From an uncultured Prevotellaceae bacterium (GTDB lineage: Bacteria; Bacteroidota; Bacteroidia; Bacteroidales; Bacteroidaceae), in NCBI GenBank assembly GCA_900318115.1, contig ONJJ01000031.1, positions 26,265 through 90,264 on the forward strand: 64,000 nt of DNA, given 5' to 3'. A model generated the notes under the pieces. The model had not been told where the DNA came from and searched no databases. It saw only the letters and a list, made by a program, of their open reading frames with translations. The position numbers were made by a program, and so were the translations under genes. How positions within the stretch are numbered: position 1 is the stretch's first letter; every line of letters begins with the position of its first letter. Positions 28,339-58,857 of the stretch are shown here, piece by piece.

Positions 28339-28342
28339 AAGC

Positions 28343-29377: not shown

Positions 29378-29387
29378 AAATGAGAAT

Positions 29388-30742: not shown

Positions 30743-30805
30743 AACTTCGTAATTATTGATTATAGTATAAATCGATAAATGGGTATTTATTCTTCTTTAT
30801 CAGCA

Positions 30806-30985: not shown

Positions 30986-30991
30986 ACCTTA

Positions 30992-34874: not shown

Positions 34875-34884
34875 AAATGAGAAT

Positions 34885-35078: not shown

Positions 35079-35155
35079 ATCTGGTAGTTCTTATCTTTAG
35101 GAATCATCCCGCAGGAAGACGGGTAAGTCCCGCGTTTTCTGCGTGTCACGCGCTG

Positions 35156-35187
35156 CAAAGATAGGCACAAATCACGTCCCTCCCAAA
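35156..35187 (-). promoter_or_regulatory. Full promoter facing the hsdM relic
   Basis: On the minus strand TTTG (35184-35187), 20 nt, TATCTTTG (35156-35163). Expected start near 35149, giving a 71-nt leader to the relic ATG. The intact hsdM lacks this element at the equivalent place. Transcription could run through the relics toward fic. Confidence 0.8.
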
Positions 35188-35253
35188 TTTTTCATTGGAA
35201 AAATGTGGGGGAGGGGATTATGAGACGGAAAAAACGATGTTACTCCGAAAAAA

Positions 35254-35281
35254 AGACCGCGCCGTTGAGTGGACGCGGTCT
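35254..35281. terminator. GC-rich hairpin, same stem as at 23486-23513
   Basis: AGACCGCG pairs with CGCGGTCT around a GC-rich loop, with A-run left and T-run right. In the minus direction it follows the virE-like gene and repeat copy C. It separates that gene from the island. Confidence 0.8.
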
Positions 35282-35286
35282 TTTTT

Positions 35287-35345
35287 GCAAAACAGAATTC
35301 CAAAATCCTTGCTAACCTTGCTAATTTCCTTAAAATTTGTTAAGC
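35287..35345 (-). repeat. Intergenic repeat copy C (TTAGCAAGG element)
   Basis: On the minus strand the core TTAGCAAGGTTAGCAAGG is followed by ATTTTGGAATTCTGTTTTGC and then the hairpin. The outer part (35346-35390) is less conserved than in copies A and B. It lies 49 bp after the stop of the virE-like gene. Confidence 0.85.
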
Positions 35346-35393
35346 GACGGGTTCAGTTGCTTCGCCCGACTCGGCTGCTCTGGAGTCCTCCGG

Positions 35394-38460: not shown

Positions 38461-40686
38461 TTATTTCGTCTGGAAATCGACGTCGGCCTTGACTTCGCCG
38501 TTGATGTCGAATCCGCTGCGGACGTAGTCGTCGTAGTCCTTGTCGTCCTTGTATTTGCGTCCTTCCCACTCGTTCTTGACGGTGTTCAGGCTCTTGTCGT
38601 AGGAAAGCGAGACGGTGTAGGGCGCCATGTTGGTGGTGTATTCCTGATCTCCCATCTGATAGACGATGTAGGGGGTGAGCTTGATGTCGCGCTTGCTCTT
38701 CTTGCTCTTTTCGATGGACCACCTGACAGCGACGTCATCCTTGACCGGTGGGTCTGTGATCTCGTATTTCTTGCCGTTGACGAGGAATCCCCATCTCTTG
38801 ACTTTCTCGCGTCCTTCGAAGTGGACATAGGTGACGAAGTCGTAGTCGTAGTAGCACGTGTAGCCGCCATTGCGCATCTGCTTGCTCTGGTGCTCCCATT
38901 GGGCGGTCTTCTTCCAGTCGTTGATGAAGGCTGTGGGCGAGGTGCTGGTGAAGGGGAAGCGGCGCGTGTACATGACCTCTTCCTTGGGGAGCCCGGGCTT
39001 GACCATGGCTATTTCGAGGTCATAGATTTCGTCGCGTTGCAGGAGATTGCTGTTGATAGGGAAACTGAAGTGCAGCCCTTGGCGGAAGGTCGTGTACTGG
39101 TGCGGGTCGAACTCCACGATGGGCTCTGCCGAGGAATAGTTGTGCGGGAAGATGCGGTAGATGGGCCTGAAACCTATTCTCGTGCCTGTCTTGCTTCCAT
39201 TGGTGAGCACGTCGAAATCGACATTGAATTGGGGCACGCTGCCAGATTCCATGTTGTTGGCACAGACGATTCGCATGTTGTCGATGGACGGGTAGAATCG
39301 GAATTCCTGCTTGCCGAACTCCCAGAACTCGCTGCCGTTCTTCTGCCCAAAGGCTTTTGCGAGATAGTCCACGAAATTCCATTCCAGCGGATCGATTTTC
39401 TTGAAGAGGTCGAAGTAGAATATTCCATCGATGTTCAGGGGAAATCCGAACTTCCACATATCGTCGTAGCCATTGGTTTCGGTATCGATGGAGGTCATTA
39501 TCCTGGGGCCGCATGTAACTTGCGCTTTTACTCCCACTCGCGGTTGTTCCAAGGGCGAGCCAAAATACAGGTCTGCTGTCAGCCCGAGTTTGGCACTGAC
39601 GGAACCTCCCGCTTTTCCGTAGAATTCGGCGTAGTCCTCGGCGGGCGGCATCTCCTCGAAGGTCAGCTCTTTGTTATGGTTCTTGAAGGTGATGCCGTTT
39701 GACTTGCCTTTGACGCCATAGGCGGCACCGATGTCCGTGTAGAAGGTCTTGATCATCTTCACGCCAATCCTGCCATTGACTTCAGCGGAGAGCACCAGCG
39801 TAGGGTAGATGTCCAGGAAGATAGGTAATCCAACGGTGGCTCCGAGGGGAACGTGGAAAATCTTTTTGAAAAGCTCCTTCAGCTGCAGGAACTCGAAGAG
39901 GTCAAAATTGAGGGCGACGTTGCCATCGATGGTGATGTAATGGGTGAAGGTGGCTCCATTGGTAAGTTTCACGTCCAGGACATTGGTGTCTGTGTTGGTG
40001 TAAACGTGAACTTTGTTGATGGGCTTCCATCGAAAATCCAGGGTGATTCCCGCCGACCCCGTCACACTGAGCCCTTCGATGGCTTTGCTGGATATTCCGG
40101 ATGAAACGGTGAAGGTGAGTGTCGTGCCTCGCTCTTCGCCGCCGAGATCCTTGTCATCAGAGGCTGTGGCACGTGTGACCTTGACGCCGTTGCCGAGGTC
40201 CATAGAATCCTCGATGAGGGAGTCTGACAGCGCGGCGAATTCTCCCTCGAGTTCGAGGTGTGAGAATACCTCGTCGATGTATGCTCGCTTGATGCGTACT
40301 TCGTAGAGGGTGTTCTGGTGGGTTACGCTCACGACGTGGTGTGCGAGGCCGTAGGGGAGCTGGTTGCAGATGGGTCCTGCGAGGATCTGTCCGGCCACGG
40401 GCAGGAGGGCGTCGGGGGTGAAGTCCTCGAGGTAGAGGGTGCCGAGGGAGTAGTCGATGCCAGCGACGTAGGAGAGGAACTGCTCGTCGAGGACGCGTGT
40501 CTGGTCGGAGTACTGGTAGGAGGCTGTGTACTCGTCGGTCTGCTCGTGGATGTAGTTGGTGGTATCCGGCGCGGCCTCCTGCTTCTCGCTCTCGGGCCGC
40601 AGGTCGTTGTCGAGGAGGGTGCAGGAGGGCAGCAGCAGGCAGAGTGCCAACAGCAGCGGATATATGCGGGAAATGCGTGGACTCAT
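38461..40686 (-). CDS. 741-aa lipoprotein, last gene of the exported-protein operon
   Basis: Signal with a clear lipobox (LLLALCLLLPSC), so an outer-membrane or surface lipoprotein. The mature part is all-beta in appearance with no family I can name: GVKVTRATASDDKDLG, then a long middle (residues about 220-420) with strands such as TFTHYITIDGNVALNFDLFEFL and GGSVSAKLGLTADLYFGSP that recall parts of the 2720-aa neighbour (ADLYFG, LGIHINLGF type strands). Residues about 480-640 look like Ig-like domains (FNVDFDVLTNGSKTG). It begins 12 bp after the 245-aa lipoprotein gene. The shared strand style suggests the two proteins bind or resemble each other; this is inference. Confidence 0.75.
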   Translation of the reverse strand: MSPRISRIYPLLLALCLLLPSCTLLDNDLRPESEKQEAAPDTTNYIHEQTDEYTASYQYSDQTRVLDEQFLSYVAGIDYSLGTLYLEDFTPDALLPVAGQILAGPICNQLPYGLAHHVVSVTHQNTLYEVRIKRAYIDEVFSHLELEGEFAALSDSLIEDSMDLGNGVKVTRATASDDKDLGGEERGTTLTFTVSSGISSKAIEGLSVTGSAGITLDFRWKPINKVHVYTNTDTNVLDVKLTNGATFTHYITIDGNVALNFDLFEFLQLKELFKKIFHVPLGATVGLPIFLDIYPTLVLSAEVNGRIGVKMIKTFYTDIGAAYGVKGKSNGITFKNHNKELTFEEMPPAEDYAEFYGKAGGSVSAKLGLTADLYFGSPLEQPRVGVKAQVTCGPRIMTSIDTETNGYDDMWKFGFPLNIDGIFYFDLFKKIDPLEWNFVDYLAKAFGQKNGSEFWEFGKQEFRFYPSIDNMRIVCANNMESGSVPQFNVDFDVLTNGSKTGTRIGFRPIYRIFPHNYSSAEPIVEFDPHQYTTFRQGLHFSFPINSNLLQRDEIYDLEIAMVKPGLPKEEVMYTRRFPFTSTSPTAFINDWKKTAQWEHQSKQMRNGGYTCYYDYDFVTYVHFEGREKVKRWGFLVNGKKYEITDPPVKDDVAVRWSIEKSKKSKRDIKLTPYIVYQMGDQEYTTNMAPYTVSLSYDKSLNTVKNEWEGRKYKDDKDYDDYVRSGFDINGEVKADVDFQTK

Positions 40687-40698
40687 AGGTGGAGAGGA

Positions 40699-41436
40699 TT
40701 ATTGGAAGTCAACGTGTATGAGGTCGGATAGGGTGCCATGGGCTTCGCCGTCGAAGGTGATGGTGTCCGGTGACTCGTAGAGGTGGAGGGTCTGGCGATC
40801 GTAGAGGCGTAGCACGAATCGCTCGGGCTGCTGTTCCTCGTCGTTGGGATAGAGGGGGTCCTGGGGATGCAGTACGGGGTCGAAGGGCGGGTGGGGATTG
40901 TTGCGGCTGTGGATGCGCATTGCGGTGTAGGGTATGCCGTAGGCTTCCTTGGCCTCGCCCACTCCGCGCACCTCATCGTCGCAGAAGGCCGCCAGGAGGT
41001 GGTGGGACTGCAGGGGTTGGCCTTCGACGGTGACGTCGAGGTAGAGCATCATCTCGAAGGGGTAGTTGCCCTGGATGACGCTCCAGGGTCGCTGCACGGT
41101 GACGTGGCAGGTGTCGTAGATGCGTTTCTCCATGGAGATGGCGGTGAGCACGGTCTCGCCCTCGCCCACGGCCACGATCTCGTTGTCCTCGATGGTGGCG
41201 ACGTTGGGGTCGTCGGACATCCAGTAGAGGGTGGTGTTGCGGATGGTGTCGGGGTCGAAGATAGGTGTCAGCGTGGTGCGGTCGCCAATCATGAGCAGGA
41301 GCTCGTGGCGGTCCAGGGTCATGGTGGCTGGCGGCACCGTGGGCTCGAACGAGAACAGTTCTCCGCAGGACGTGAGTAGTCCTGCCAGCAGGAGGGCCAG
41401 CAGCGGCAACGTTCTATGTAGCTTCGAGTATTTCAT
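40699..41436 (-). CDS. 245-aa lipoprotein with one Ig-like (BIG2-type) domain
   Basis: Signal and lipobox LAGLLTSC, then an Ig-like domain of the BIG2 kind (residues about 35-115): MTLDRHELLLMIGDRTTLTP, TLYWMSDDPNVATIEDNEIVAVGEGETVLTA. The C-terminal half (VIQGNYPFEMMLYLDVTVEGQ, LLAAFCDDEVRGVGEA, RFVLRLYDRQTLHLY) resembles a segment of the 1020-aa protein at 53840 (NAYEFAAFVQGEVGDPQLRGIGEL), so the two may share a domain. It is 65 bp after the fibronectin-domain gene and 12 bp before the 741-aa gene. Confidence 0.78.
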   Translation of the reverse strand: MKYSKLHRTLPLLALLLAGLLTSCGELFSFEPTVPPATMTLDRHELLLMIGDRTTLTPIFDPDTIRNTTLYWMSDDPNVATIEDNEIVAVGEGETVLTAISMEKRIYDTCHVTVQRPWSVIQGNYPFEMMLYLDVTVEGQPLQSHHLLAAFCDDEVRGVGEAKEAYGIPYTAMRIHSRNNPHPPFDPVLHPQDPLYPNDEEQQPERFVLRLYDRQTLHLYESPDTITFDGEAHGTLSDLIHVDFQ

Positions 41437-41501
41437 TTAATGGAGTTTATGGGGCGGATGGGGTTTATGGGCTTAATGGGCTTAATGGGTTTTATGGGGG
41501 A
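41437..41501. repeat. TTTATGGG/CTTAATGGG low-complexity spacer
   Basis: The spacer between the 245-aa and 769-aa genes is built of short G- and T-rich units (GGCTTAATGGGCTTAATGGG). No coding frame is visible. Confidence 0.6.
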
Positions 41502-43811
41502 TTATGGGTTGGAGGGTGCGGGATCTTCTTTGGGCCGGCGGATGGTGATGACCTCCGAAGGCTGGCTTTCGCGTCCGTCGCGCGTCATGAGTTTGACGTA
41601 GAACTGGGCTTCCTCGCCGGGCTCGAGCAGGACGTCGGAGTAGGAGGTGTCGTCCTTGGTGGTGGTGGTGACGGCTCGGAAGAGGTCGTCGCCGGGTGCC
41701 ATGCGATAGACGCTGAAGTAGTAGTCCGTCTCCTTGACGTCGCTGACTTCCCATGCCAGTCGCGTCTCGCCCTTCTGGCGGTCGAAGTCACCGATGAGGT
41801 GGATGGAGCAGCGCACGTTGAGGGGCGGGCGGCGCTTGACGGTGTAGGCGAGGCTCATGCCGCTGCTGATGTCGGAGGAGTTGAAGGACTCCACGGCGTA
41901 GAGGTAGCGGTGCTCGCGGTTGTAGGTAGGCTGGTCGGTGTAGTTGACGAGGTTGCCGAGGGCCTTGACGGAGTCGGCGTCGAGGCGGGCAATCATCGTC
42001 CACCGTTTCTCGTTGTCGAGGCGGCGCCAGAGCAGGTGGTAGTCCATGAGTTCATCGGCTCCGACGACCCAGCGCATGTGTACTCCTTCGGGATCCACGA
42101 AGGCGCTGTCGAGGTGTGCCACGGTGGGCGGCACGAGGGTGGGGCGCTTGACCTGTAGGATGTCGCTGTAGGCACCCTCGTTGGTGGAGTAGTCCACCGC
42201 GCGTACCTTATAATAGATGTACTTCTGGTTGACGTCGAGTGCGAGGGTGTCGGTGAAGAGGGTGTCGCGCAGTCCGGCGGGGCTGAGGATGTGCCAGGCG
42301 TGGGTGGTGTCGTTGGCGAAGGCTACCTGGTAGTAGTCGATGTCGTCGGAGGGTGCGCTCCAGTGGAGGACGACGCGCCCGTCGGGGTTCACGTCGGCAC
42401 GCAGGTTGCGGGGCGGTGCTGGTGGCACCATGTCCTCGATACGTATCTGCACGGGCATGGAATGGCGCATGTTGCCGCTCAGGTCCACGGCGGTGACCAC
42501 GAGCAGTCCGGTTCGCAGTCCTGTGACTTCCACGGTGCAGACGGTGTCGGTGGGTGCTGCGAGGGAGTCCTCGGGCAGCAGGGGCAGCCACTGGTCGCCG
42601 GTGAGCTGCTGGTGGTGGTAGAGGGGTAGGAAGCCCTTGAGGTCGGCATCGAGGGTGTCGGTCTGCCAGGTGATGTGTGCGAAGATGCGCTCGCTCTCGG
42701 TGCGGTCGATCTCGATGTGCGCCACGGTGGGCATGGAGGGCGGAATGCGGTCGCCGATTTCCACGCGCACGGAGGGGGAGGGCTCGGTGAGGTCGCCGAA
42801 GGCATCGTGGGCGCGAACGCGGTACTCATAGGTGCCGGGCTGGTGGACGAAGTCGGCATAGAGGGCGATGTCGCGGGTCTGGTCGTCCTTGAGGAAGGGG
42901 ACGAAGGGGAGCTTGTTTGCGCGATGCCACTCGGTTCCGGCGGGAAAACCGCCGGACACACTGCCGGAGGATGATGATGAGGAGGAGGCGATGGCGGAAG
43001 AGGAGGCGCCGGGGAGGGGGGAGATGAGGCGGCGCTCGATCTCGAAGCTGGAGTAGTTGCGCTTGTCCCACTCGAGGTCCACCTCGAAGGTGCCTACGAT
43101 GCTGTCGCGGATGGTGACGTCGAAGGGTTCGGGGGTGTAGCGGGTGTTCTCGATGTCCTGGATGAAACCGGGCTGGAAGATGAGCATGGAGTCCTCGTCC
43201 CAGACGGTGGGCTGGAGGATGTACTGGTAGTGCTCGCCGCGCTTGACGTTGTGGTCCACGAATCGCATGGCGAGGTCCTCGGCGAGGTCACGGCGCCACT
43301 CGGTGATGAGCACTGCCATGCCGAATACCATGTTCTGCTCCTCGCTCAGCTCCACGAGAGCTCCCATGGTGCCGGGGCGGTTGCGTGTCTGGTCGGGCTT
43401 GGTGCGCCCGTCGCCCCAGGTGAGTTCTGCCACCATTCCTGCCAGGGAGTCGGCGGGATTGGTGTACTTGGCCAGCATCTGTTCCTTGGAGAGTGGCTTG
43501 AAGGCGTATGCGAGGGTGTCGAGTCCGTCGGGCGAGATGCGCAGGAGGTTGACACCTTTCTCGTTGAGGTAGCGCCATGAGACGAAGTCCTCTGCCGCCC
43601 AGCGCAGGACGATGCTGTCGCCGTAGGCTCGCGCCATGAGGTTCATCTTCGAGCGGACGAGGGGACGGTAGTTGGAGTTCTCGAGGCTGTCGACGTCTTC
43701 GAGCACGGAGTCTGCTGGCACCTCGGCGAGGGGCGCTTGGGCGGCGACTGCTAAGGGGAGGAATAGCAGGGCTGCCAGGACGGATAATATATGTCGTTTA
43801 GCGATACTCAT
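41502..43811 (-). CDS. 769-aa exported protein with fibronectin type III domains
   Basis: Signal peptide MSIAKRHILSVLAALLFLPLAVAAQ. Residues about 40-260 form an unassigned N-terminal domain (GDSIVLRWAAEDFVSWRYLNEKGVNLLRIS). A serine-rich linker follows near 265-290 (SSSAIASSSSSSSGSVSGG). The C-terminal 470 residues are repeated fibronectin-III-like modules with YEYRVRAHDAFGDLTEPS, PPAPPRNLRADVNPDGRVVLHWSAPSDDIDYYQV, KYIYYKVRAVDYSTNEGAYSD and YYFSVYRMAPGDD. It should be at the cell surface and bind something. It starts 15 bp after the end of the 2720-aa gene. Confidence 0.83.
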   Translation of the reverse strand: MSIAKRHILSVLAALLFLPLAVAAQAPLAEVPADSVLEDVDSLENSNYRPLVRSKMNLMARAYGDSIVLRWAAEDFVSWRYLNEKGVNLLRISPDGLDTLAYAFKPLSKEQMLAKYTNPADSLAGMVAELTWGDGRTKPDQTRNRPGTMGALVELSEEQNMVFGMAVLITEWRRDLAEDLAMRFVDHNVKRGEHYQYILQPTVWDEDSMLIFQPGFIQDIENTRYTPEPFDVTIRDSIVGTFEVDLEWDKRNYSSFEIERRLISPLPGASSSAIASSSSSSSGSVSGGFPAGTEWHRANKLPFVPFLKDDQTRDIALYADFVHQPGTYEYRVRAHDAFGDLTEPSPSVRVEIGDRIPPSMPTVAHIEIDRTESERIFAHITWQTDTLDADLKGFLPLYHHQQLTGDQWLPLLPEDSLAAPTDTVCTVEVTGLRTGLLVVTAVDLSGNMRHSMPVQIRIEDMVPPAPPRNLRADVNPDGRVVLHWSAPSDDIDYYQVAFANDTTHAWHILSPAGLRDTLFTDTLALDVNQKYIYYKVRAVDYSTNEGAYSDILQVKRPTLVPPTVAHLDSAFVDPEGVHMRWVVGADELMDYHLLWRRLDNEKRWTMIARLDADSVKALGNLVNYTDQPTYNREHRYLYAVESFNSSDISSGMSLAYTVKRRPPLNVRCSIHLIGDFDRQKGETRLAWEVSDVKETDYYFSVYRMAPGDDLFRAVTTTTKDDTSYSDVLLEPGEEAQFYVKLMTRDGRESQPSEVITIRRPKEDPAPSNP

Positions 43812-43826
43812 TGCATGTCTGTTTTG

Positions 43827-46800
43827 TTATTCAGCAGTATTGTTCAGCTCGTAATCCTTCTTCCAGGACTTCAGCGGCCAGTCGTTGTCGGATCTGTTGA
43901 AGGTTCTCTCCAGCACGTTCTTCTTGTAGCTTTCGCTCAGGTCAATGCAGTCGTAGTTCATCGTTTCGAGGTTGAACGCATTCACGCGATAGGCACTGAA
44001 CGTTATCGAAGCGATGCGTTCCATGGCCTCCTGCGGTGAGTACCTGTCGAAGGAGGAACTTTCGATCATTTCACTATTCGGATAATAGTTGCTCTTCTCG
44101 CGGGTGAACATATACCACATCTTCGTTGACCATTCCTGGTTGGTACGTGAGTTGCCTTTCAGCGACGGCATGGACTTGTTCAGTCCCTTTTCGTTGTTCG
44201 GGTCGAAGATAGAACCGAAGACCAGCGGATACTGATATACAGGAATCTCGATGCTGATCGGTGAGGTATCTTTGTAGTACATGTTCTTGTAGGAGAAGCG
44301 ATGTGTTGCGTACACTCCGCGGTAGCTGTTGTTGTATTCCTGAAGAGATTTCTTCAGGGTACTGTTGCCGTGATTCTTGTACAGGTATTTGTACCATGAA
44401 CCGGGGGCGTAACTATACGTCGTTCCGGGTTCATAGGCAGATGGTGCACCACCCAGATCCCTTCTGCGAGGGATTTCTTCTCCTGCTCCTTCCACCAGAT
44501 AGTAGACACCTATGAGGTTGAAGATGGCATTGAAATACCTACGTTTCTCAAATTTGGACGGAACGATCTGCGATGTGAGGTTGCTCTGTCCGCCGAGGAT
44601 CTTGTTGTTGCACCACTCATCCTCCTCGTTCTCGAAGAATGGCAGCGGATATTGATGACCTTCTGCTCCGAATGCCGAGCAATCGGGATCGTAGGAGAGC
44701 TTGCGGATGGGAGCTATGCCCTTGGAGATATTGTAGGGTTCCAATAGCTTGAAATTCCCGCTCCATACACCGCCACGGTCGCGATAGACGAGGGATTCGC
44801 TGACGGGAACGGCATCGCCATAGGCATCCTCACCTGTTTCGAAGGCGTAGTTCTTGATGGGATGACCACCGATGAAGAAGTAGTTGCCCAGATACGACAT
44901 ATAGATGTACGGGTTCAGCACGCGTACGGCTCTTCCGTCTCGTTTCTTCGTCTCCCGTGCGATCGATATGTCAGTTCCTTCGAGGTCGTTGTCGCTGTCC
45001 AAGAAGGTCACGTTGGATGGCCTGATGCCTATGAATGGCTTTGAGTATTCCGGGAAGTCCCGATCGGTGAGATACTTCGATATAGTGTTCTTATATCCTT
45101 TGAGCCAGTCGCCATCTACGGTTTTGACGGCAACATCCATGAGTTCGGCAATGGTGTCGATGACTTCTCGTGTGCGTGTGACGTCTTGATAGGTGGGCAC
45201 GGTCTGCTGTGAGGACTGACTGGCCGAGGGCGTTTTGCTTCTGCCGAGTAGCGAACCGCTTTCCAGAGGCTGACGTAAGCCAAGTCCCTGTTGATTGTCC
45301 ACCGTCTGGTAGCCCGTCTGCACCCGTTCGGTGTATTCCTCCGTGTGGGAGTTCTCGTAGGTGATGCTGATTCGGAACTGCTTGTCGCCCTTCGCGATAG
45401 CGTCCTCCGCCTGCTTCTCCCATCCGCTGGCGGTGGAAGGCACCATGTTGATGCAGTTGCCGTTCACAAGGTAGTCGTTCTCTGCCTCGCAGACGAGTGT
45501 GGACACCGTTTCATTATCCGTATCCTCTGTGGAGAAGAGTCGCCAGACGAGCCGTCCGTTCTGATAGAGGTTGCCACGGATATCGCTGTTCAGGGCGATG
45601 GTCGGATGGACGACGTCCTCGGGATAGGCGTCGACGTAGTCATACTTGTAGACGGTCTTTCCGGTCGTCTTCATGGCTCCCACCTTCTGGGATACCGTCA
45701 TGTTCTGGCCGAAGCCGGAAGCGATGTTGATGTCGGAGCCGCTTGAGGATGAGGAGGAGCGCGAGGTCACGGTCGTTCCACGAGCTGCGCTGCCGGTGGT
45801 CGGGGAAAGGGAGGAGGTGCGGACCTTGACCTGCGAAGCGGTGCGGTTGCTTTTCAGGTTGTTCCGCACGGAAGGATAGGCGATGGCGACATAGTCCTGC
45901 AGCGGAGCGGCATCGTCCACCTCCTCTCCCTGACCTGTGCGGAAGAAGTAGCTCTGGGTCTGTATCCACGGATCCTCGGTCCATCGGGAGCCCTGCCAAT
46001 CGGGTTCGGGATGGAAGGTTCTGGGATTCTGCTCCACACCCTTCACGATCTCCTTGGCCGTTCCCTTGACGACGATGGCGTAGTATTTGTTCTTCTTCAG
46101 GCTGCTACCTGCGATGGACAGCCCGTGGGACGTCTGGGAGAAGTCCTTCACGGAAATAGTCTTCCTGGTCCACCGTGCCCCTCTCTGCGGTACCAATCCT
46201 GAGATGACTCTCTTGTACTCGGACGAATCCGGACGGTAATCGAATTCATAGAGTTGTACACTGCCCTGGCGGCGGAAAACGAAGGTGCGCTTGGCCTGCA
46301 TCTCCAGCTGTTCGCGGTCGAAGGCATTATCCCTGTTGTAGCTCTCAAGGAGTTCGTTGAGGGAGTTCTCGTCGAGCACGCGGAAGTTGGCGTCCAGGGG
46401 AGCCTGGCTCTCGAAGCGCGGCTGAGCAATGAAGTCGGGATCCACGATGTCGGCTTTGTCTGCCCAACCCTCTTCCATCTCCGGCACACCGAGGGTGCAG
46501 TCGCCGAAGAGTTCGAAGTTGTCCAGCGGGTTGCCGTAGAAGATGCTGCATCGGGTGCCGCACTCGAAGCTGAAGCGGCGGTTGATGTTCACCAGTCCGC
46601 CCAGCAGCTTCAGCTTGATGCGTGCGTCGCCGATGAAGTAGTTGGGGTGGGGCAGTCCGCAGCGGAGCACGCCACCGATGCCGGCGTTGATGATGTCGAA
46701 ATCATGGTTCCAGAATCCGAGGTTGATATGAATGCCGAACTTGGCGGCGAGGTAGGCGTAGAGCTGTCCTTCGCCGTACCATCCGTTGTATCCCATGCGT

Positions 46801-51989: not shown

Positions 51990-53691
51990 CTTTGATCTTG
52001 CGCTTTATTTGGAGAAGGCTGAACGTGTAGGTGTAGCTCAGTCCTATCTGGGTCTCTGTGATGTTGTACATCTCGTCGTTGCCGGTGAAGTTCACGTCGT
52101 TGGAGCGTGCCACACTGGCGTTGAGGCTGAAGGTGTGGTACTGCTTCAGGGTGTAGCCGGCAGATAAGTCACCGCCGAGCGACATGTTCTCGCGCACGTG
52201 GCGCATCTTATTATAGATGATGTTCAGGTTGGCTTGCACGTGGAGGTTGCCTTCCTCGAAGAAGGAGCGTCCGGCACTGAACGTCAGGATGTCGCTGGTG
52301 TAGCGGGTGTTGTAGCCTCGTGACTGCTGATGGTGGAAGCTGGCGCCGAAGTCTGTGCGCCAGGGCTCCACGGTGAGGGAGTAGGTGGCGCCGGCGGAGT
52401 TGGTGCTGACGTCGGACATGCCCGTGGCGAAGCGGTTGAGGTCCTTGTTCATGTTCCAGCCGCCGGAGAGGGAGATGGTGTGGCGCAGGTCGTCTTCGCC
52501 GAAGCTGTAGCCGGCGGAGGCACCGATGCTGTGCATGATGCGGTTGACGCGTGTGGTGTCGTTCACGCGGGCCATGCCGTCGTACTGCCGCTGCAGGTAG
52601 CCGTTGTAGCGCAGGTTCAGCGACACCTTGCCTATGCGTGTGCTGGCATTGGCGTTATAGACAAAGCCCTTGGTGGTAAAGAGCTGCTTGCCCGAGAGGT
52701 TGTCCGACTGGAGCGAGAAGCTGCCAGAGAGGCTTACCTTGCGGAAGAGGTGCGTGCCGGCCGTGACGCCCAGCGACTGGTAGTTGTTCGACATGTAGTA
52801 GGCGCCCAGCGAGGTGTAGTCGGGCTGCACGATGCGGTAGCTGAGGGAGGCATTGATGCCGCGCAGCGAGAAGTTTACGTTCGCGTCGCCCGCGAAGCGC
52901 ACGTTGGAGGTGTACTTCGCGTCGAAAATCTTGTCCCAGCGCTGCAGCTTGTCGCTGGGCACGCTCTCTGCGCGGGTGTCGGAGGTAAAAAGGGATGTGG
53001 CAGCGTTGGCCGTGAGGCTGAGCCACTTGGTGATGCGTGCGTGGCCACGGAGACCCAGCACGAGGTTGCTCTGCGGGTTCACGCGCTGGCGCCAGCTCTC
53101 GTCGATACTCGAGAGGGCATCGTAGGCGCGCAGGAAATAAAGGTCGAGGTAATAGTCGTTGGAACCGTAGCCAACCTTCAGGCCCCATGCCAGACGCTTG
53201 TACTGAGGAGCCCGGGCATGAGGATCTTCGGGATTATCGTTGATGGCGTTGCGCAGGCGTCCGTAGAAGATGCCGCCGCGCAAGCGCTTGCCCTGGTATT
53301 CCACGCCGACTCCATTGAACGACATATTCATCACGTAGGGGCTGAAGGCCATGCTGCTCTGTCCGAAGTAGCCGTGCCACTCCTTGTAGGTGGGCGAGAG
53401 GTTCAGCGAGAAGTGAGGATAGTTGAAACTGAAGTCGCTGTTGGAATAGAAGAGCGAGAAGGGCATGGAAATACCATATACGGACACGTTCAGGTTCGCC
53501 CAGATGGTGCTCTGGAAGGGTGAACTGTACTGGTAGCCCGTGGAATGGTAGAAGGTGTTGGTCGTTCCTATAGCGCCTGAGATCACCAGCGGATCGCTCT
53601 TGGCAATCTGCGCAATGTCCTGTGCCATGGCTCCCGAGAAAGGAACTACGGACAGGGCAATGGATAGGATGAGGCGGCGGAACTGCTTCAT
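51967..53691 (-). CDS. Outer-membrane beta-barrel protein of the exported-protein operon
   Basis: The ATG at 53691 (MKQFRRLILSIALSVVPFSGAMAQ) gives a signal peptide and a 574-aa product; the frame is open further up, but those extra residues are not signal-like and cross an inverted repeat. The mature protein is a long series of amphipathic strands (YGISMPFSLFYSNSDFSF, GVGVEYQGKRLRGGIFYGRLRN, SLSGSFSLQSDNLSG, TISLSGGWNMNKDL), typical for a large outer-membrane barrel, with no plug domain. The end is basic (KRKIKDETKKKQ). It overlaps the start of the 2720-aa gene, so the two are made together. It may be the membrane anchor or export pore of that protein; this is inference. Confidence 0.78.
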   Translation of the reverse strand: MKQFRRLILSIALSVVPFSGAMAQDIAQIAKSDPLVISGAIGTTNTFYHSTGYQYSSPFQSTIWANLNVSVYGISMPFSLFYSNSDFSFNYPHFSLNLSPTYKEWHGYFGQSSMAFSPYVMNMSFNGVGVEYQGKRLRGGIFYGRLRNAINDNPEDPHARAPQYKRLAWGLKVGYGSNDYYLDLYFLRAYDALSSIDESWRQRVNPQSNLVLGLRGHARITKWLSLTANAATSLFTSDTRAESVPSDKLQRWDKIFDAKYTSNVRFAGDANVNFSLRGINASLSYRIVQPDYTSLGAYYMSNNYQSLGVTAGTHLFRKVSLSGSFSLQSDNLSGKQLFTTKGFVYNANASTRIGKVSLNLRYNGYLQRQYDGMARVNDTTRVNRIMHSIGASAGYSFGEDDLRHTISLSGGWNMNKDLNRFATGMSDVSTNSAGATYSLTVEPWRTDFGASFHHQQSRGYNTRYTSDILTFSAGRSFFEEGNLHVQANLNIIYNKMRHVRENMSLGGDLSAGYTLKQYHTFSLNASVARSNDVNFTGNDEMYNITETQIGLSYTYTFSLLQIKRKIKDETKKKQ

Positions 53692-53720
53692 GGGTAGGAT
53701 CGTAGATTGATTCATCAGAT

Positions 53721-53828
53721 CACGGATTACGCGGATAAACACGGCTGCATATCTTTCTTTCCTGCTGGATAGCATTCTCATTCACGCGGTCGAGGAAGGA
53801 CATTCCCGTGTGGTCCGCGTAATCCGTG
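53721..53828. repeat. Inverted repeat CACGGATTACGCGGA between the 1020-aa and barrel genes
   Basis: The arm at 53721-53744 (CACGGATTACGCGGATAAAC plus ACGG) and the arm at 53806-53828 (inverse of CACGGATTACGCGGACCACA plus CGG) are complementary, with a 61-bp spacer. Sequences of the GATTACGCGGAT type are widespread in this phylum. It could slow transcription between the first and second gene. Confidence 0.7.
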
Positions 53829-53839
53829 TCCTTACATTA

Positions 53840-56800
53840 TTATTTACGCACCACCTTGCGGACGGATCCGTCGGAGAGGCGCTGGATGCTGATGCCGCGC
53901 TGGCTGCCGCTGATGCGACGACCGCTGAGGTCGAAGGACTCGGTGGCTGCGGCGTCGGTGCTGAGGCCCTGGACGCCGGTCACGATGGTCTTGCCCTTCT
54001 GCATCTTCAGGGGCTGGCGCACGGTGCCGAGCATGCTCTGGAACGGCACGCTCTCGTTGATTTCGCAGAGGTCGCGCGTGTCGTTGTCATAGAGCTTGAA
54101 GGTGATGGTCTCGCCGGCCTGACCGTGGACGGTGATGAAGAGCTTGCCCTGGACGGCAGCACCCTGGCCGCGGCACTCGTCGCCCACGAAGGCGAAGACA
54201 CGGCAGTTGTCCACGAAGGGAACGTTCTCCAGCTGGGCAACAATCGTCATGTTGTCGCGGAAGCGGGAAGGATCGTAGGTGAAGAGCGCGTAGTCCGGCA
54301 GACGACGGGCAGGAGCCGTGTAGGTATAGCGGTCGTGGTCGTCGGGCAACGTCAGTTCGTTGACAAACGGCAACGTACGGCCTTCACTGCCGGCGTTGTA
54401 GAACATATAGCCCTGACCGCACTTGAACTCCTCGAGCGTTCCAATCCAATCGCCATCTTCGAATTCGACAAAGCCGTCTGCGAAGGATACGATGCGGTCG
54501 CCATTCTCAAAGGCCATCTCGGTGAAAACCAGATTCAGCCAACGGTCGAAGAAGAAGGGGTTGGGAATCCAGTTCCAGCCTGCGCGCAGGGTGATGTCCG
54601 GAACCTGACCCAGCTGACCTGAGGTGAAGATGTATTCGTTAGCTTCGGGATTCTCGTTCATCTTCAGCTTGAAGCATGTGTTCTGGCTGATGAGGTGATT
54701 ATCGCCGAAGTAGCCATACTGCGGGTCGTTGTAGAGCTGTTCGCTCTGCGTACGGATTTCGATGAGGTCGTCGCCATAGATGTTGTAGAGACCTGCATCG
54801 ACGGGACTGCCAAATGGGATGGTCTGCCACTGCCAACCGCCGGTGAAGCTGTGGCGATAGCCAATCTGAATCGGGTCGCTGGTAATAGCCAGACCGTCGG
54901 CTGTGCCGTCGTCGTAACGAACTTGGACGAGGACGGAGCCGGGGATGCGGGGATGTACGTCGCAGACGACATTACCCTGATTGTCTAAGGCGAGGTCGCA
55001 GTCATCCTTGATGCCCAGAGGATCCCAGGTCTCATTGCCGCTGTAGATGGCAGTGACCACGAACTTGCTGAGGTCGGTGTCGAACGAGGCTCCGGAGGGA
55101 ACGGGCTTGATGGTGAAGGTGGCATCATCGCCTGCCACGAAGTTCGTCGGGAATTCCAAGGCGAGGCCAGAAAGCCCCTCGGAGATGATGAAGTCGAAGC
55201 TGGCACTCTTCATCGTGACGTGGTCATCACCCGTTGGATCAAAGGTGGCTGCGAGGTAGTCCTTTACTTTAATGGTGGCTGTGATGGTTGCGGTTCCAGC
55301 CTTGTAAGCGATGAAACCAGCGTTCTCCTCGGTTGCGGTGGTGGGGTCGTCCGGCATGAGATAATTGACCACGGTAGGATCGCTGGACACGATGGAGAAA
55401 TAGAGGTCGTGCATATAGGCCGCGGTGGTGGGAAGCATCACGAAGGCCTCGTCCATGTTAAATAATGTGGTGATATTCTTGGGGAACTCCGTCACGGATA
55501 TATTATAAGAAGGAGTCGGAGCCACAATATCCGTATAAGCCGAATATACGCGGACATAGACGTTGACACTCTTGGTCGGGTCAGATAAGGAAGTGACCTT
55601 CAGGACTTCTGTAATGGCGTTGCCTGCAAGAGCTGTAATCTTCCCGTCAGTACCTATGGAGACAGCACGGGTTTCAGACTCGGGAATGGCATATTCTATC
55701 TTCACCGCTTTGTTCGTGGCGTTGGCCGGCTCAATGTTGAATGCTAATCCGTCAACGAAGTACGGCGTGAGGTCGTCACCGGGAAGACATTCAATATAGG
55801 TGATGTCGGATGATTCGGGATGGAAGATGAATTGCGAAGTAATACCCGTTACAGGCTGGGCAACATGAACTGTCACGTTGATGGGGGCTATGGCCTCACG
55901 AGCCGTTCCCGTATGATCTACGATGGTACCTGTCAGAACAGCATCGCCCACGGCATACGCTTCAGCGAGCAAGACCTTGGCATTGATGCCGACAATCTCC
56001 TCGTTCGCAGAACTCCACACGATCCTATCGGTAGAATTGGAGGGGGTGAGGGCGAATGCAGCGCCCAGCTGGTTGTTCAGTCGTTCGTTGTCGCCGACGT
56101 TGACCGTTATTTCAGTCAGATATTGCTCAATAGCGGTGGCTGGTTGAAAGATACGAATCGTGTTATAGGTTGATATGTTACCAGCTGTTGCTGTCAGGGT
56201 AAAGCCTTCGGCGTTAGGAGCCACTGCTTCCATCACACTGCCGTTCAAAGTGACGCAGTTGATTCCATCGGGCAGTTGGAAGGAGATGTTGGATGGAAGG
56301 GAGGCAGTGGAAGGATAGGGATTAAGGTAGTTCTTCAGGTCAACCTCCTCTCCTACGTTCAGGTCTATGTTATTCAGGGATAAGCTGGTGAGGGGATAAA
56401 GATCAAGGTGGAGAGGGTTGGACGGGATACCGGGGTCGATCGTTTCTCCCGTGAATACTGGAATTTCTTGCTCTACAGACAGCTCGTACTCGATTTGGGT
56501 GGTCTTGTCAAATGCCTTGAAGGAAATAACGCTGCCGTTGTCTTGAGGAAGCGTGCCTTCGATACGGAAGCGAATCAGATAAGCTTCTACAGGGGAATTG
56601 GTATTCTGGACCAGCTCACCTATGCCACGGAGCTGCGGATCTCCCACTTCTCCTTGGACGAAGGCTGCAAATTCATAAGCATTCAAGTCTGAAAATGCGT
56701 TGATGGTCTGATTGGCATCTGGAGTGACCACAATCAAATCTGAATAGACAAAAGTCTCGTGTTGATACTGGCCTCCGGTATAGGTCCAGTGATTCTCCGG

Positions 56801-56902
56801 AATGAGCACGGGTTCTGTGGGCAACGGGTCTGGCTCTGGTTGTGCCCAAGTAGCTGAAGCCATCGTCAGCAGGGATAGTGCGAAGAGTAATAAACGTTTC
56901 AT
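53840..56902 (-). CDS. 1020-aa exported multi-Ig protein with T9SS-like C-terminus
   Basis: Signal peptide MKRLLLFALSLLTMASATWAQ. A first domain (residues about 35-150) is like that of the 245-aa lipoprotein. The middle holds several Ig-like/BIG2-type domains, e.g. LNPYPSTASLPSNISFQLPDG, FALTPSNSTDRIVWSSANEEIVGINAKVLLAEAYAVGDAVLTG and FNIEPANATNKAVKIEY. From about 690 on there is a segment with ITLRAGWNWIPNPFF. The last 75 residues (MQKGKTIVTGVQGLSTDAAATESFDLSGRRISGSQRGISIQRLSDGSVRKVVRK) fit the type A sorting signal pattern of the type IX secretion system. It is the first gene of the operon, after the paired repeats at 57006-57045. Target unknown. Confidence 0.82.
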   Translation of the reverse strand: MKRLLLFALSLLTMASATWAQPEPDPLPTEPVLIPENHWTYTGGQYQHETFVYSDLIVVTPDANQTINAFSDLNAYEFAAFVQGEVGDPQLRGIGELVQNTNSPVEAYLIRFRIEGTLPQDNGSVISFKAFDKTTQIEYELSVEQEIPVFTGETIDPGIPSNPLHLDLYPLTSLSLNNIDLNVGEEVDLKNYLNPYPSTASLPSNISFQLPDGINCVTLNGSVMEAVAPNAEGFTLTATAGNISTYNTIRIFQPATAIEQYLTEITVNVGDNERLNNQLGAAFALTPSNSTDRIVWSSANEEIVGINAKVLLAEAYAVGDAVLTGTIVDHTGTAREAIAPINVTVHVAQPVTGITSQFIFHPESSDITYIECLPGDDLTPYFVDGLAFNIEPANATNKAVKIEYAIPESETRAVSIGTDGKITALAGNAITEVLKVTSLSDPTKSVNVYVRVYSAYTDIVAPTPSYNISVTEFPKNITTLFNMDEAFVMLPTTAAYMHDLYFSIVSSDPTVVNYLMPDDPTTATEENAGFIAYKAGTATITATIKVKDYLAATFDPTGDDHVTMKSASFDFIISEGLSGLALEFPTNFVAGDDATFTIKPVPSGASFDTDLSKFVVTAIYSGNETWDPLGIKDDCDLALDNQGNVVCDVHPRIPGSVLVQVRYDDGTADGLAITSDPIQIGYRHSFTGGWQWQTIPFGSPVDAGLYNIYGDDLIEIRTQSEQLYNDPQYGYFGDNHLISQNTCFKLKMNENPEANEYIFTSGQLGQVPDITLRAGWNWIPNPFFFDRWLNLVFTEMAFENGDRIVSFADGFVEFEDGDWIGTLEEFKCGQGYMFYNAGSEGRTLPFVNELTLPDDHDRYTYTAPARRLPDYALFTYDPSRFRDNMTIVAQLENVPFVDNCRVFAFVGDECRGQGAAVQGKLFITVHGQAGETITFKLYDNDTRDLCEINESVPFQSMLGTVRQPLKMQKGKTIVTGVQGLSTDAAATESFDLSGRRISGSQRGISIQRLSDGSVRKVVRK

Positions 56903-56976
56903 AATCGTGGGGTATTTAAGGATGAATAATTATTGCATTTGCTGGATTTCGCATGGTTTGGGGAGTTTCCACGCTG

Positions 56977-56984
56977 CAAAGTAC
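56977..56984 (-). promoter_or_regulatory. Weak -7 box before the 1020-aa gene
   Basis: The minus strand reads GTACTTTG, one base short of TAnnTTTG, and there is no TTTG at -33. The proximal direct repeat (57006-57024) ends 21 nt upstream of it, where the -33 element should be. This fits an activator-dependent promoter. Confidence 0.45.
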
Positions 56985-57005
56985 GTTATTTCTTCGCGTA
57001 TAAGG

Positions 57006-57045
57006 GTTGTCAAAAAGCGCAAAAAAGTTGTCAAAAAGCGCAAAA
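57006..57045 (-). promoter_or_regulatory. Two 19-bp direct repeats with 21-bp period, likely regulator site
   Basis: GTTGTCAAAAAGCGCAAAA occurs at 57006-57024 and, identical, at 57027-57045. A 21-bp period places both on the same face of the helix, as in the paired half-sites of AraC-type activators. The neighbouring gene codes for such a regulator. Confidence 0.65.
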
Positions 57046-57071
57046 CCTGTTTAAAATGTACAAAAAGCCCA

Positions 57072-57118
57072 CAAAAAAGAGCCGCGTGACAACTACAGCG
57101 TTTGTTGTCCCACGGCTC
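57072..57118 (-). terminator. Terminator of the TPR-AraC regulator gene
   Basis: On the minus strand GAGCCGTGGGACAAC (57104-57118) pairs with GTTGTCACGCGGCTC (57079-57093) with two mismatched positions, followed by TTTTTTG. It separates the regulator from the promoter of the 1020-aa gene. Confidence 0.85.
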
Positions 57119-57168
57119 ACAAGTTCGAATGTTTGTCTATGCCCCGGCGTACTCCAAGGGGCGTCAGT

Positions 57169-58857
57169 CTATGTCTTGGTGTACTCCGAGGGAGTGACAC
57201 CATACCTATTCTTGAATGCTCGGGTGAAGTTCGATTTGTCCTCGAAGCCGCAGCGCAGTCCCACTTCTTGGATATTCAGTTCGGGGTGCTTGTCCAGCAG
57301 GTCCTTGGCTTTCTCCATGCGCAGTCGCATGAGGTAGGCCTGGGGCTTCTCCTGCACGAGTTCCGTGAACTTCCGTCGGAAGCTGGTCATGCTCATGCAC
57401 ATCTCCTGTGCCATGGCTGCTACGTCGATGCGTCCCTCGTCGATCTGCCGGTCCACAATCTCCTTCACCCTGTTCAGGAACTCGCGGTCGTGGGGAAGCA
57501 TGGTGTCGTCGTCAGAATCGGTGGAGGCTGCCATCGAAGCATCCACCAGCTTATCGCCCGATTGTTGGCTGCTGAGTTCCTCGAGGCTGTCGGTCAGCTG
57601 ATTGAACTGCAGCTCGAACTCGCGTGTGCGGCGACGCAGTCGCCAATACTGCCATCCGGCAATGCAGCCCAGCAGCAGCGCGACGAGGAGTCCGATATAA
57701 TAATGTTTGCGTGCGCGCGCACGATGTTGCTCGGTTTCGGCCTGCAGCTCGGCGTTCTCCAAGAGGGCGCTCTGCTCGCCCATGGCGGCAGCCACCTGGC
57801 TGCTGTAGAGGCTGTCTTTCAGGAAATTGTAGCGGGCGAAGTGCTCCTGAGCCACGTCGGGGAGCGAGTCGTGGAGGGATTTGTAAAGACCCAATCGGGT
57901 GTGCAGCTCATTGTAAACATCGCCCATGGCCTGGAAGATCTGCAGCGCTGTCTGGTAGTAGCGGGCGGCGGTGGCAGGGTCCTCGGCGTGCATGGAGAGT
58001 TCGCCCATCTTGTTGCAGGCTATTCCCAAGGAGTGGTAGTCGCCGGAGCTCTGCAGCACGGGTATGGCAGCCTTCAGGCACTCGCGTGCCTCGTCCAGTC
58101 GATCCAGTCCCACGAGGGCTGCCGCCATCTGTGTCTGCCGCACTGCCACGCGGTCGGCGTTGCCCAGTCTGGCATCGATGTCCCGGGCCCGGGTGGCATA
58201 CTCGAGTGCTTTCTCCTGTTCGTCCAGGGCATGGTAAACGTCAGCGGCCGTGCCGTTGAGGATGGCCAGACGCCTTTGGTTCCCAGCCTTCTCGCACGCT
58301 TCGATACCTTTCAGCACATAGGGCTCGGCCTCTTGCGGCAGGTTGGCACTGATATAGATGCCTGCCAAGGTGTTCAGGCTGGCACTGATGCGGTCGTTGT
58401 CGCCACTCTTCAGGTCCAGCTCGTAGCATCGTTTGGCGTAGTCGATAGCCTTCGGTTGGTCGCCTAAGCGGACATAGTTCAGTGAGAGGAGGCTGAGGCA
58501 GTCTGCGGCAGCATCGCCATGGTAGAGTGGCAATGCCTGGAGGCAACGCTCCACGGATTCCTGATAGCGCTGTCCGTCATAGAGCAGTTCTCCTGCCCAG
58601 TAGCATACCTGCTGGCGCACGGAGTCGGAGGGGGTGTCGACGCCAAAATGCACGGTTTCATCGATGAATCCGATGGCTTGCAGCTGTTGGAAGAAGTCGT
58701 TTGCCACAGAGAGACGGAGCACATCGTCCTCCGCGGCATCGAACTGTGCGAGGAGCGTCAACGGGTCCTTGGTTGCCTCGTCTGCCAGCACCAAGCGCGG
58801 CAGGAGGGAGGTGAGGAAGGACAGGAGGAAAAGAAAGTATAGTCTGTGCTGCTTCAT
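57169..58857 (-). CDS. Membrane-anchored TPR protein with cytosolic AraC-type DNA-binding domain
   Basis: A 562-aa regulator. After a signal-like segment (LYFLFLLSFLTSLLPRLVLA), residues about 30-370 form tetratricopeptide-like helical pairs in the periplasm (ADCLSLLSLNYVRLGDQPKAIDYAKRCYELD, GELSMHAEDPATAARYYQTALQIFQAMGD). A transmembrane helix near 386-406 (YYIGLLVALLLGCIAGWQYW) is followed by a coiled linker and, from about 460, an AraC/XylS domain (IDVAAMAQEMCMSMTSFRRKFTELV, IQEVGLRCGFEDKSNFTRAFKNRYGVTPSEY). It should sense something in the periplasm and bind DNA from the membrane. The operon downstream is the likely target. No kinase domain is present, unlike hybrid two-component systems. 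Confidence 0.9.
   Translation of the reverse strand: MKQHRLYFLFLLSFLTSLLPRLVLADEATKDPLTLLAQFDAAEDDVLRLSVANDFFQQLQAIGFIDETVHFGVDTPSDSVRQQVCYWAGELLYDGQRYQESVERCLQALPLYHGDAAADCLSLLSLNYVRLGDQPKAIDYAKRCYELDLKSGDNDRISASLNTLAGIYISANLPQEAEPYVLKGIEACEKAGNQRRLAILNGTAADVYHALDEQEKALEYATRARDIDARLGNADRVAVRQTQMAAALVGLDRLDEARECLKAAIPVLQSSGDYHSLGIACNKMGELSMHAEDPATAARYYQTALQIFQAMGDVYNELHTRLGLYKSLHDSLPDVAQEHFARYNFLKDSLYSSQVAAAMGEQSALLENAELQAETEQHRARARKHYYIGLLVALLLGCIAGWQYWRLRRRTREFELQFNQLTDSLEELSSQQSGDKLVDASMAASTDSDDDTMLPHDREFLNRVKEIVDRQIDEGRIDVAAMAQEMCMSMTSFRRKFTELVQEKPQAYLMRLRMEKAKDLLDKHPELNIQEVGLRCGFEDKSNFTRAFKNRYGVTPSEYTKT

What the first reader, a model, noticed from the sequence alone, without database searches (positions are those of the whole stretch)
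38461..58857. A 20-kb regulated operon of giant exported proteins with no recognised function
Six exported proteins (1020, 574, 2720, 769, 245 and 741 aa) are encoded on one strand with overlaps or gaps of 12-150 bp. Seen: signal peptides or lipoboxes in all, an all-beta barrel overlapping the 2720-aa gene, Ig-like and fibronectin domains, a T9SS-like tail on the first protein only, and a TPR-transmembrane-AraC regulator upstream. Inference: a surface machine or adhesive structure in which the barrel anchors the 2720-aa protein and two lipoproteins complete it, turned on by a periplasmic signal. The 245-aa and 1020-aa proteins seem to share a domain, and the 741-aa and 2720-aa proteins share a strand style, which argues for one system and not a random cluster. 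A TANFOR-type N-terminal domain may be the only named part.
Basis: partly seen in the sequence, partly recalled or inferred. Interest (0 to 1): 0.75.

Follow-up and report, generated by a model that had tools for sequence, protein, structure and literature searches.

The report
Giant outer-membrane TANFOR surface operon
Six neighbouring genes in a gut Bacteroidota genome form one conserved cell-surface system whose giant protein joins two parts that many relatives keep as separate neighbouring genes, which suggests that a little-studied toxin-associated domain belongs to a larger outer-membrane machine.

Summary
In detail: six exported proteins lie on one strand in the order and sizes stated. 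They are one system, not a chance cluster. The order A(1020)-B(barrel)-C(2720)-D(769)-E(245)-F(741) recurs in rumen and gut Prevotellaceae and Bacteroidaceae; C-D, with B nearby, recurs in Flavobacteria, Cytophagia, Chitinophagales and Saprospiraceae. The rest of C is a separate conserved beta-rich core. Of 64 C loci examined, 25 carry TANFOR on the same frame, as here; 23 have a separate TANFOR gene within 25 kb, always on the same strand; 16 show none. B is a predicted ~24-26-strand outer-membrane barrel of MtrB/usher size. Only A carries a T9SS-type tail; E and F carry lipoboxes. I infer that B anchors or exports TANFOR-C with D, while T9SS adds A. The published toxin reading of TANFOR proteins is not met here: no toxin domain found, no immunity gene after C, no swapped tails. 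Function at the bench is untested. Novelty: new variant of a known kind.

The parts
57169..58857 (-). R: TPR - transmembrane - AraC-type regulator, 562 aa
   Evidence: Pfam HTH_18 9.9e-23, TPR_12 2.9e-21; a frame matching its profile lies near A in 15 of 32 testable loci; the transmembrane stretch is read by eye
57006..57041 (-). Exact 15-bp direct repeat (57006-57020 and 57027-57041), starts 21 bp apart, between R and A; candidate AraC-type operator (inference)
   Evidence: 0 of 60 shuffles reach it
53840..56902 (-). A: 1020-aa exported protein with a T9SS type-A-like C-terminal tail and Ig-like (Big_2, sub-threshold) regions
   Evidence: tail motif in 49 of 57 A-family proteins; TIGR04183 in 12 of 25 A tails at E up to 0.1
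53843..54052 (-). Region of the T9SS-like sorting tail of A
51967..53691 (-). B: predicted outer-membrane beta-barrel of about 24-26 strands, 574 aa
   Evidence: AlphaFold2 pLDDT 86.1, pTM 0.72; Foldseek best hit MtrB 6r2q_B TMq 0.55, then FimD/PapC ushers
43827..51989 (-). C: 2720-aa exported protein, TANFOR-type N-terminus fused to a conserved beta-rich core and a further tail
51426..51857 (-). TANFOR-type domain of C (about residues 45-188)
   Evidence: hhalign of the C N-termini against 11 TANFOR domains 99.0%, E 3.5e-18, 98.8%, E 6.4e-17 without the one row that lies on a C fusion; TIGR02542 17.2 bits on the N-terminal piece, cut-off 67
46275..49787 (-). Conserved beta-meander core of C (residues 735-1905)
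   Evidence: 76-sequence alignment; AlphaFold2 pLDDT 75.7, pTM 0.48
43830..45842 (-). C-terminal tail of C (about residues 2050-2720), no known domain, no sign of swapping between close relatives
41502..43811 (-). D: 769-aa exported fibronectin type III protein, partner of C
   Evidence: Pfam fn3 1.5e-09; follows C in 45 of 48 and 21 of 21 testable loci; distance correlation with C 0.91
40699..41436 (-). E: 245-aa lipoprotein sharing a domain with A
   Evidence: lipobox LTSC; hhalign with A 98.4%
38461..40686 (-). F: 741-aa lipoprotein
   Evidence: LPSC lipobox read from the sequence; lipobox in 27 of 30 F relatives; present in 28 of 29 testable loci

Best explanation
The operon encodes one cell-envelope display system of the TANFOR kind. 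SHOWN by sequence and comparison: C and D, usually with B (a predicted large outer-membrane barrel), form an inherited core; C in this lineage is a TANFOR domain fused to a core that many other Bacteroidota encode apart from it; A alone has a T9SS-type tail; E and F are lipoproteins. INFERRED: all six are exported by Sec; A leaves through the T9SS and sits on the surface, in the place that a SprB-repeat protein holds in some other lineages; C, which has neither T9SS tail nor lipid anchor, is held in or passed through the wide barrel B with D as its Fn3 partner; E and F fix the assembly to the outer membrane. The fused TANFOR-C protein would be a permanent part of the surface structure and not a released toxin. 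R would adjust expression.
For: Operon order: in 57 rumen/gut loci B lies upstream of C in 48 of 50 testable, D downstream in 45 of 48, A in 46 of 46, E in 30 of 33, F in 28 of 29; in 23 distant loci D follows C in 21 of 21 and B directly precedes in 9 of 20. TANFOR link: hhalign 99.0%, E 3.5e-18 with 11 TANFOR domains, 98.8%, E 6.4e-17 with 10, leaving out one that proved to lie on a C fusion; a single-sequence search with the 10-domain profile hits C in 41 of 57 rumen/gut loci. Fusion logic: of 64 C loci in 41 genomes TANFOR is on the same frame in 25 and within 25 kb in 23 more, all 23 on the same strand; chance about 2.2. B: 64 of 71 B loci lie within 25 kb of C or TANFOR, 110 of 112 pairs on one strand, chance at most 4.8; in the order sample B is in 28 of 32 genomes with C and 29 of 263 without, Fisher p 2.8e-19, uncorrected for kinship. 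Division of signals among the six. B model of MtrB/usher size. C and D evolve most alike, r 0.91. T9SS (SprA) is in the window's genome.
Against: No physical contact or localisation is shown. The C-core model has pTM 0.48 and no global fold match (TMq at most 0.15 among the 50 hits listed), so its place in or through B is open. The window's own C is among the more diverged: it is hit by the 11-domain TANFOR profile (E 1.1e-4) but not at E 0.001 once the C-fusion row is left out. T9SS is not specially linked: by my comparison of the lists, SprA is in 16 of 19 C carriers against 154 of 201 family genomes; G303 (100% complete, two operons), G301 (99%) and G425 (86%) show no SprA match. In 16 of 64 C loci no TANFOR was found, 7 of 71 B loci and 16 of 75 TANFOR loci stand apart. 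No regulator of type R was found near A in 17 of 32 loci.
Confidence: 0.5

Rival explanations
1. Polymorphic toxin: C is a TANFOR toxin in the sense of Jana et al. 2020, delivered to competitors with a toxic C-terminus, T9SS being the exporter.
For: TANFOR-type N-terminus; T9SS-type substrate beside it; TANFOR genes of other Bacteroidota sit in the same kind of neighbourhood: 11 of 12 fetched TANFOR loci (of 16 places found) have a B, C or D neighbour; the paper reports SprB, Fn3 and T9SS-tail enrichment near TANFOR genes (PMC7073777).
Against: No Pfam match in the C tail; in the 7 close pairs complete to the end the last 200-column bin stays 77-100% identical; D follows C in 45 of 48 loci, so an immunity gene directly after C is not seen; no T9SS tail motif on C, 0 of 58. 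Pfam also found nothing over cut-off in 8 other TANFOR tails, so this test is not very sensitive.
Confidence: 0.2
2. Conduit: the long amphipathic beta-meander of C is a lipid or glycan groove (LptD, TamB or apoB-like) that feeds the wide barrel B.
For: C strands have one hydrophobic and one polar face (+1.41 / -0.87, against +1.02 / -0.95 in the barrel B); the Foldseek list has SlpA, LptD and apolipoprotein B-100 among its first 20.
Against: Those hits have TM-scores (by query) of at most 0.15, and any meander sheet may give them; no AsmA, TamB or LptD Pfam match in C; among the genes matched in the operon none is a lipid or glycan synthesis gene.
Confidence: 0.15
3. Gliding-like or adhesive system: B, C and D are a platform for a surface adhesin (SprB-repeat protein elsewhere, A here), used for attachment to plant fibre or host.
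For: SprB-repeat proteins beside D in L087, L079 and L093 (3 of 10 neighbours scanned); Ig-like and Fn3 content; rumen and gut provenance of the close relatives.
Against: A has no SprB repeat; B is not in the PorP/SprF family, whose only hit in the window's genome is on another contig; no adhesion assay exists.
Confidence: 0.15

Closest known systems
TANFOR-containing polymorphic toxins of Bacteroidetes (TIGR02542; Jana, Salomon and Bosis 2020, PMC7073777)
   Same: N-terminal TANFOR-type domain after an export signal; Fn3 and T9SS-substrate neighbours; large size; T9SS-bearing host
   Different: TANFOR is fused to the C core; no toxin domain, immunity gene or swapped tail found; barrel B and core C are not among the enriched neighbours of the paper's Table 1 (its supplementary data were not seen)
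SprB/SprF gliding adhesin operon (sprCDBF) of Flavobacterium
   Same: T9SS-exported surface protein beside an outer-membrane barrel (recalled, and passages); SprB-repeat proteins occur next to D in three distant relatives
   Different: B is a 550-600-aa barrel outside PorP/SprF; A lacks SprB repeats; kinship of C or D with SprC or SprD was not tested
Large outer-membrane barrels: MtrB and FimD/PapC ushers
   Same: Predicted strand number and size of B; Foldseek TMq 0.55 to MtrB, 0.43-0.47 for the better usher matches
   Different: About 10% identity, no usher or MtrB family match, no chaperone or cytochrome family among the seven proteins

Membership tests
TANFOR-containing polymorphic toxins | TANFOR domain over the curated TIGR02542 cut-off (67 bits) | tested here: not met
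   12.6 bits on the whole protein, 17.2 bits on the N-terminal piece; note that 0 of 24 genomes searched reached the cut-off
TANFOR-containing polymorphic toxins | N-terminal domain homologous to TANFOR | tested here: met
   hhalign 99.0%, E 3.5e-18; 98.8%, E 6.4e-17 without the C-fusion row
TANFOR-containing polymorphic toxins | C-terminal toxin domain | tested here: not met
   no Pfam match in the 670-aa tail at E 0.05; Pfam only, a novel toxin fold cannot be excluded
TANFOR-containing polymorphic toxins | polymorphism: swapped C-termini between close relatives | tested here: not met
   14 closest of 92 pairs examined, 7 complete to the end: last 200-column bin 77-100% identical, single bins dip to 60-70% but homology is never lost
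TANFOR-containing polymorphic toxins | downstream immunity gene | tested here: not met
   D follows C by 15 bp in the window and within 500 bp in 45 of 48 testable relatives
TANFOR-containing polymorphic toxins | T9SS substrates nearby and T9SS in the genome | tested here: met
   A tail by motif and relatives; SprA on G000:C34
T9SS type A substrate (protein A) | C-terminal sorting domain TIGR04183 / PF18962 | tested here: inconclusive
   window copy gives no hit; 12 of 25 aligned tails hit TIGR04183 (best 2.7e-6), 10 of 25 hit PF18962 (best 3.3e-4), at E up to 0.1; tail motif in 49 of 57
SprB/SprF (PorP-like) adhesin pair | barrel of family TIGR03519 beside the adhesin | tested here: not met
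   the one hit in the window's genome is on contig C52, not here
SprB/SprF (PorP-like) adhesin pair | SprB repeats in the exported protein | tested here: not met
   no PF13573 in A
Chaperone-usher system | usher and chaperone families | tested here: not met
   no such Pfam match in the seven proteins

The most novel reading that the evidence does not exclude
B, C and D are the missing machine of the TANFOR proteins: a Bacteroidota-wide outer-membrane export-and-display apparatus, separate from the T9SS, whose cargo is the TANFOR protein. In the rumen Prevotellaceae cargo and machine have fused into one 2,400-5,000-aa polypeptide.
Probability: 0.3. Interest if true: 0.85.

Novelty: new variant of a known kind. 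Interest (0 to 1): 0.6.

Why it matters
How TANFOR proteins leave the cell is open: the 2020 paper only speculates that T9SS does it. The linkage found here names concrete partners (a large barrel, a giant beta-rich protein and an Fn3 protein) and a natural fusion that ties two of them together, which makes the question directly testable in Flavobacterium relatives. It also gives a family definition to proteins of about 1,400-5,000 aa that the public models used here leave almost unannotated.

Tried and rejected
Random cluster: rejected by conserved order, strand and co-occurrence. SusCD-like uptake locus: no such family in the seven proteins. Kinship of F with C, of D with C and of B with C: hhalign 1.6%, 0.4% and 1.3%. 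T9SS co-occurrence as support: uninformative within the family, 16 of 19 against 154 of 201. A DUF6603 hit in C (E 0.011, below cut-off) was not pursued; no paper in the library mentions that family. PHROGs hits to E, D and A lie over their Ig-like and Fn3 stretches and are not taken as phage kinship. phmmer of C against PDB sequences gave one weak hit to a designed fusion, E 0.0058. A scan for a Bacteroides-type -7 box (recalled consensus) placed none upstream of A. The whole-genome pattern search for the direct repeat used a spacing wrong by one base and says nothing.
Full report
WHAT IS THERE. On the - strand, downstream of a TPR-AraC regulator (R, 57169-58857), lie A (1020 aa), B (574-604 aa), C (2720 aa), D (769 aa), E (245 aa) and F (741 aa), with gaps of 12-148 bp (from the 574-aa start of B) and one 23-bp overlap. 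Pfam recognises the regulator domains and Fn3 in D over cut-off; the other Pfam and NCBIfam hits to A-F are below cut-off, including TANFOR on C at 12.6 bits. The window lies in a 3.33-Mb draft genome that holds two further C copies, on C17 and C40. The C17 copy is an A-F operon with a divergent regulator, although its F frame is short (437 aa).

ONE SYSTEM. A search with C found relatives in 32 of 295 order genomes (26 of 184 genera) and in 19 of 201 family genomes (8 of 30 genera). Twenty family neighbourhoods were fetched. In 18 C is of the long type, and the order A-B-C-D-E-F recurs on one strand as far as each stretch reaches, except that frames cut by the stretch end in the F place of L070 and the E place of L078 were not matched; the other two (L079, L080) have a short C with D and other neighbours. 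A scan of named genomes found at least 551 relatives, of which the best 80 were kept. The first 57 (L101-L157) are mostly Prevotella, Prevotellaceae and Bacteroidaceae MAGs, many from ruminants. Where the contig allows a test, B adjoins C in 48 of 50, D in 45 of 48, A lies upstream in 46 of 46, E downstream in 30 of 33 and F in 28 of 29. In the 23 more distant loci (two of them rumen Bacteroidales, the rest Flavobacterium, Aquimarina, Galbibacter, Reichenbachiella, Chitinophagales, Saprospiraceae and others) D follows C in 21 of 21 and B directly precedes C in 9 of 20; A, E and F were not detected. C-D distances correlate at 0.91, C-B 0.82, C-E 0.82, C-A 0.75, C-F 0.70, with 0 of 300 permutations as high in each case; shared descent alone can give such values.

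WHAT C IS. The N-terminus of C aligned with 26 long-type relatives matches an alignment of 11 TANFOR domains found with TIGR02542 with 99.0% probability, E 3.5e-18 over 140 columns. One of the 11 (L194) proved to lie on a C fusion; without it the match is 98.8%, E 6.4e-17. Searched singly, the 11-domain profile finds the window's C at E 1.1e-4 and C in 40 of 57 rumen/gut loci; the 10-domain profile finds C in 41 of 57, but not the window's own at E 0.001. The TIGR02542 model itself hit 1 of 27 members, the window, at E 0.0037. So by the curated cut-off C is not a TANFOR protein, while by profile homology its family is. In two distant loci, L162 and L175, TIGR02542 finds the domain directly on C (E 2.5e-7 and 1.8e-8). 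The rest, residues 735-1905, is a separate conserved core (76 sequences). In 41 genomes chosen for having C, 64 C loci were compared with 75 TANFOR places: 25 C are fused (frames of 1,594-4,431 aa), 23 have a separate TANFOR within 25 kb and always on the same strand, and 16 have none; 35 of the 39 unfused frames are 1,396-1,723 aa. Chance predicts about 2 of 64. Of 12 TANFOR neighbourhoods fetched (of 16 places), 11 hold B, C or D, the exception being L214; L217 and L218 look like two copies of one stretch, and L220 is itself a TANFOR-C fusion. Thus the window shows a fusion of two proteins that in many relatives are separate neighbours, the usual sign of joint function.

THE BARREL. B is modelled at pLDDT 86.1, pTM 0.72, with about 24-26 strands by my count of the listed elements. 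The best PDB match is MtrB (6r2q_B, TMq 0.55), followed by FimD and PapC ushers: barrels wide enough to hold or pass a protein (general knowledge). B occurs in 41 of 41 of these genomes; 64 of 71 B loci lie within 25 kb of C or TANFOR (46 both, 11 TANFOR only, 7 C only), 7 near neither; 110 of 112 pairs are on one strand, against at most 4.8 loci expected by chance. In the order sample B is in 28 of 32 genomes with C and 29 of 263 without (Fisher p 2.8e-19; C was sought with one sequence and B with a profile, and kinship is not corrected for). B is not a PorP/SprF barrel.

SORTING SIGNALS. A T9SS-tail motif is found in 49 of 57 A and in none of 50 B, 58 C, 47 D, 36 E or 30 F; lipoboxes in 26 of 36 E and 27 of 30 F, against 0 of 57 A, 1 of 50 B, 3 of 58 C and 1 of 47 D. 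Twelve of 25 A tails hit TIGR04183 at E up to 0.1, the window's own not. Of ten neighbour proteins other than B, C and D scanned with Pfam, three carry SprB repeats (L087, L079, L093, all beside D); the T9SS tail is over cut-off in one of them, L093. Others were a SusD-like protein, a tricorn-type protease and a cellulase.

CORE STRUCTURE. The C core is predicted as a long meander of amphipathic strands (pLDDT 75.7, pTM 0.48). Foldseek lists SlpA, LptD and apolipoprotein B-100 among the first 20, but with TMq of at most 0.15 among the 50 listed, so no fold is assigned.

MECHANISM. Shown: gene order, linkage, domain make-up, signals. Inferred: A leaves by T9SS; C, lacking a T9SS tail and a lipid anchor, is held in or passed through B; D assists; E and F fix the assembly to the membrane. 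The toxin reading was tested and several of its features are not met: no toxin domain, no swapped tails in the 7 complete close pairs, no immunity gene directly after C. Pfam also saw nothing over cut-off in eight other TANFOR tails, so a new toxin fold is not excluded.

REGULATION. A frame matching the R profile lies near A in 15 of 32 testable loci (122-951 aa, some probably fragments or other TPR proteins). An exact 15-bp repeat with a 21-bp step lies between R and A in the window. Twelve of 48 regions upstream of A show a repeat of at least 12 of 14 matches at steps of 19-23, eight of them at 21; L064 and L104 are the same contig by length. This is a lead only.

AGAINST. SprA is no commoner in C carriers than in the family (16 of 19 against 154 of 201, my comparison); G303, G301 and G425 lack a match, although the A proteins of G303 keep the tail motif. 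Sixteen of 75 TANFOR loci have neither B nor C near, and 16 of 64 C loci have no TANFOR found. The structural placing of C is unproven.

LITERATURE. Of three papers holding the word TANFOR, one treats it: Jana et al. 2020 (PMC7073777; parts 1-3 of 6 read, and passages). It reports enrichment of SprB, Fn3, PKD and the T9SS tail and speculates on T9SS export. PMC11796102 mentions the word once and was not opened; the third is about smartphone sales. Searches for TANFOR, SprB and related terms (listings only) showed me no account of B or C; subscription journals are largely not held. PMC12635249, PMC9870892 and PMC5879114 were seen as passages only.

Noticed in passing
G000:C17:1-20000 (L061) and G000:C40:84679-92285: Two more copies of the system in the same genome: C17 carries all six genes and a divergent regulator (its F frame is short, 437 aa); C40 holds at least B and TANFOR-C.
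   Followed up: partly
L073-L076 and L078 (C frames of about 3,600-4,790 aa, some cut): The longest C proteins carry extra copies of the TANFOR-like stretch (profile positions about 24-125) ahead of the core.
   Followed up: no
L102/L138 (same isolate): B is much more alike between two operons of one genome (61%, rank 2 of 47) than C (35%, rank 30 of 51) or D (31%, rank 41 of 43), as if barrels were homogenised or shared.
   Followed up: no
G303: A 100% complete genome with two operons and T9SS-tailed A proteins shows no SprA_N match.
   Followed up: no
L175 / G506, titled Armatimonadetes: A MAG titled Armatimonadetes holds 8 B matches, 7 TANFOR matches and a SprA match; probably a mislabelled or mixed bin.
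   Followed up: no
window 26001-32000: G+C falls to 0.42-0.48 against 0.50-0.62 in the other 2-kb bins, which suggests acquired DNA.
   Followed up: no
window 34048-36761: By eye from the translations, a REP-type transposase-like frame (34048-34611) and a VirE-like P-loop ATPase frame (35394-36761) lie just outside the operon; names recalled, not searched.
   Followed up: no
L217 and L218 (G503:C28, both ends): The same D - large protein - TANFOR - small genes block appears at both ends of one contig in opposite orientation, a recent duplication or an assembly artefact.
   Followed up: no
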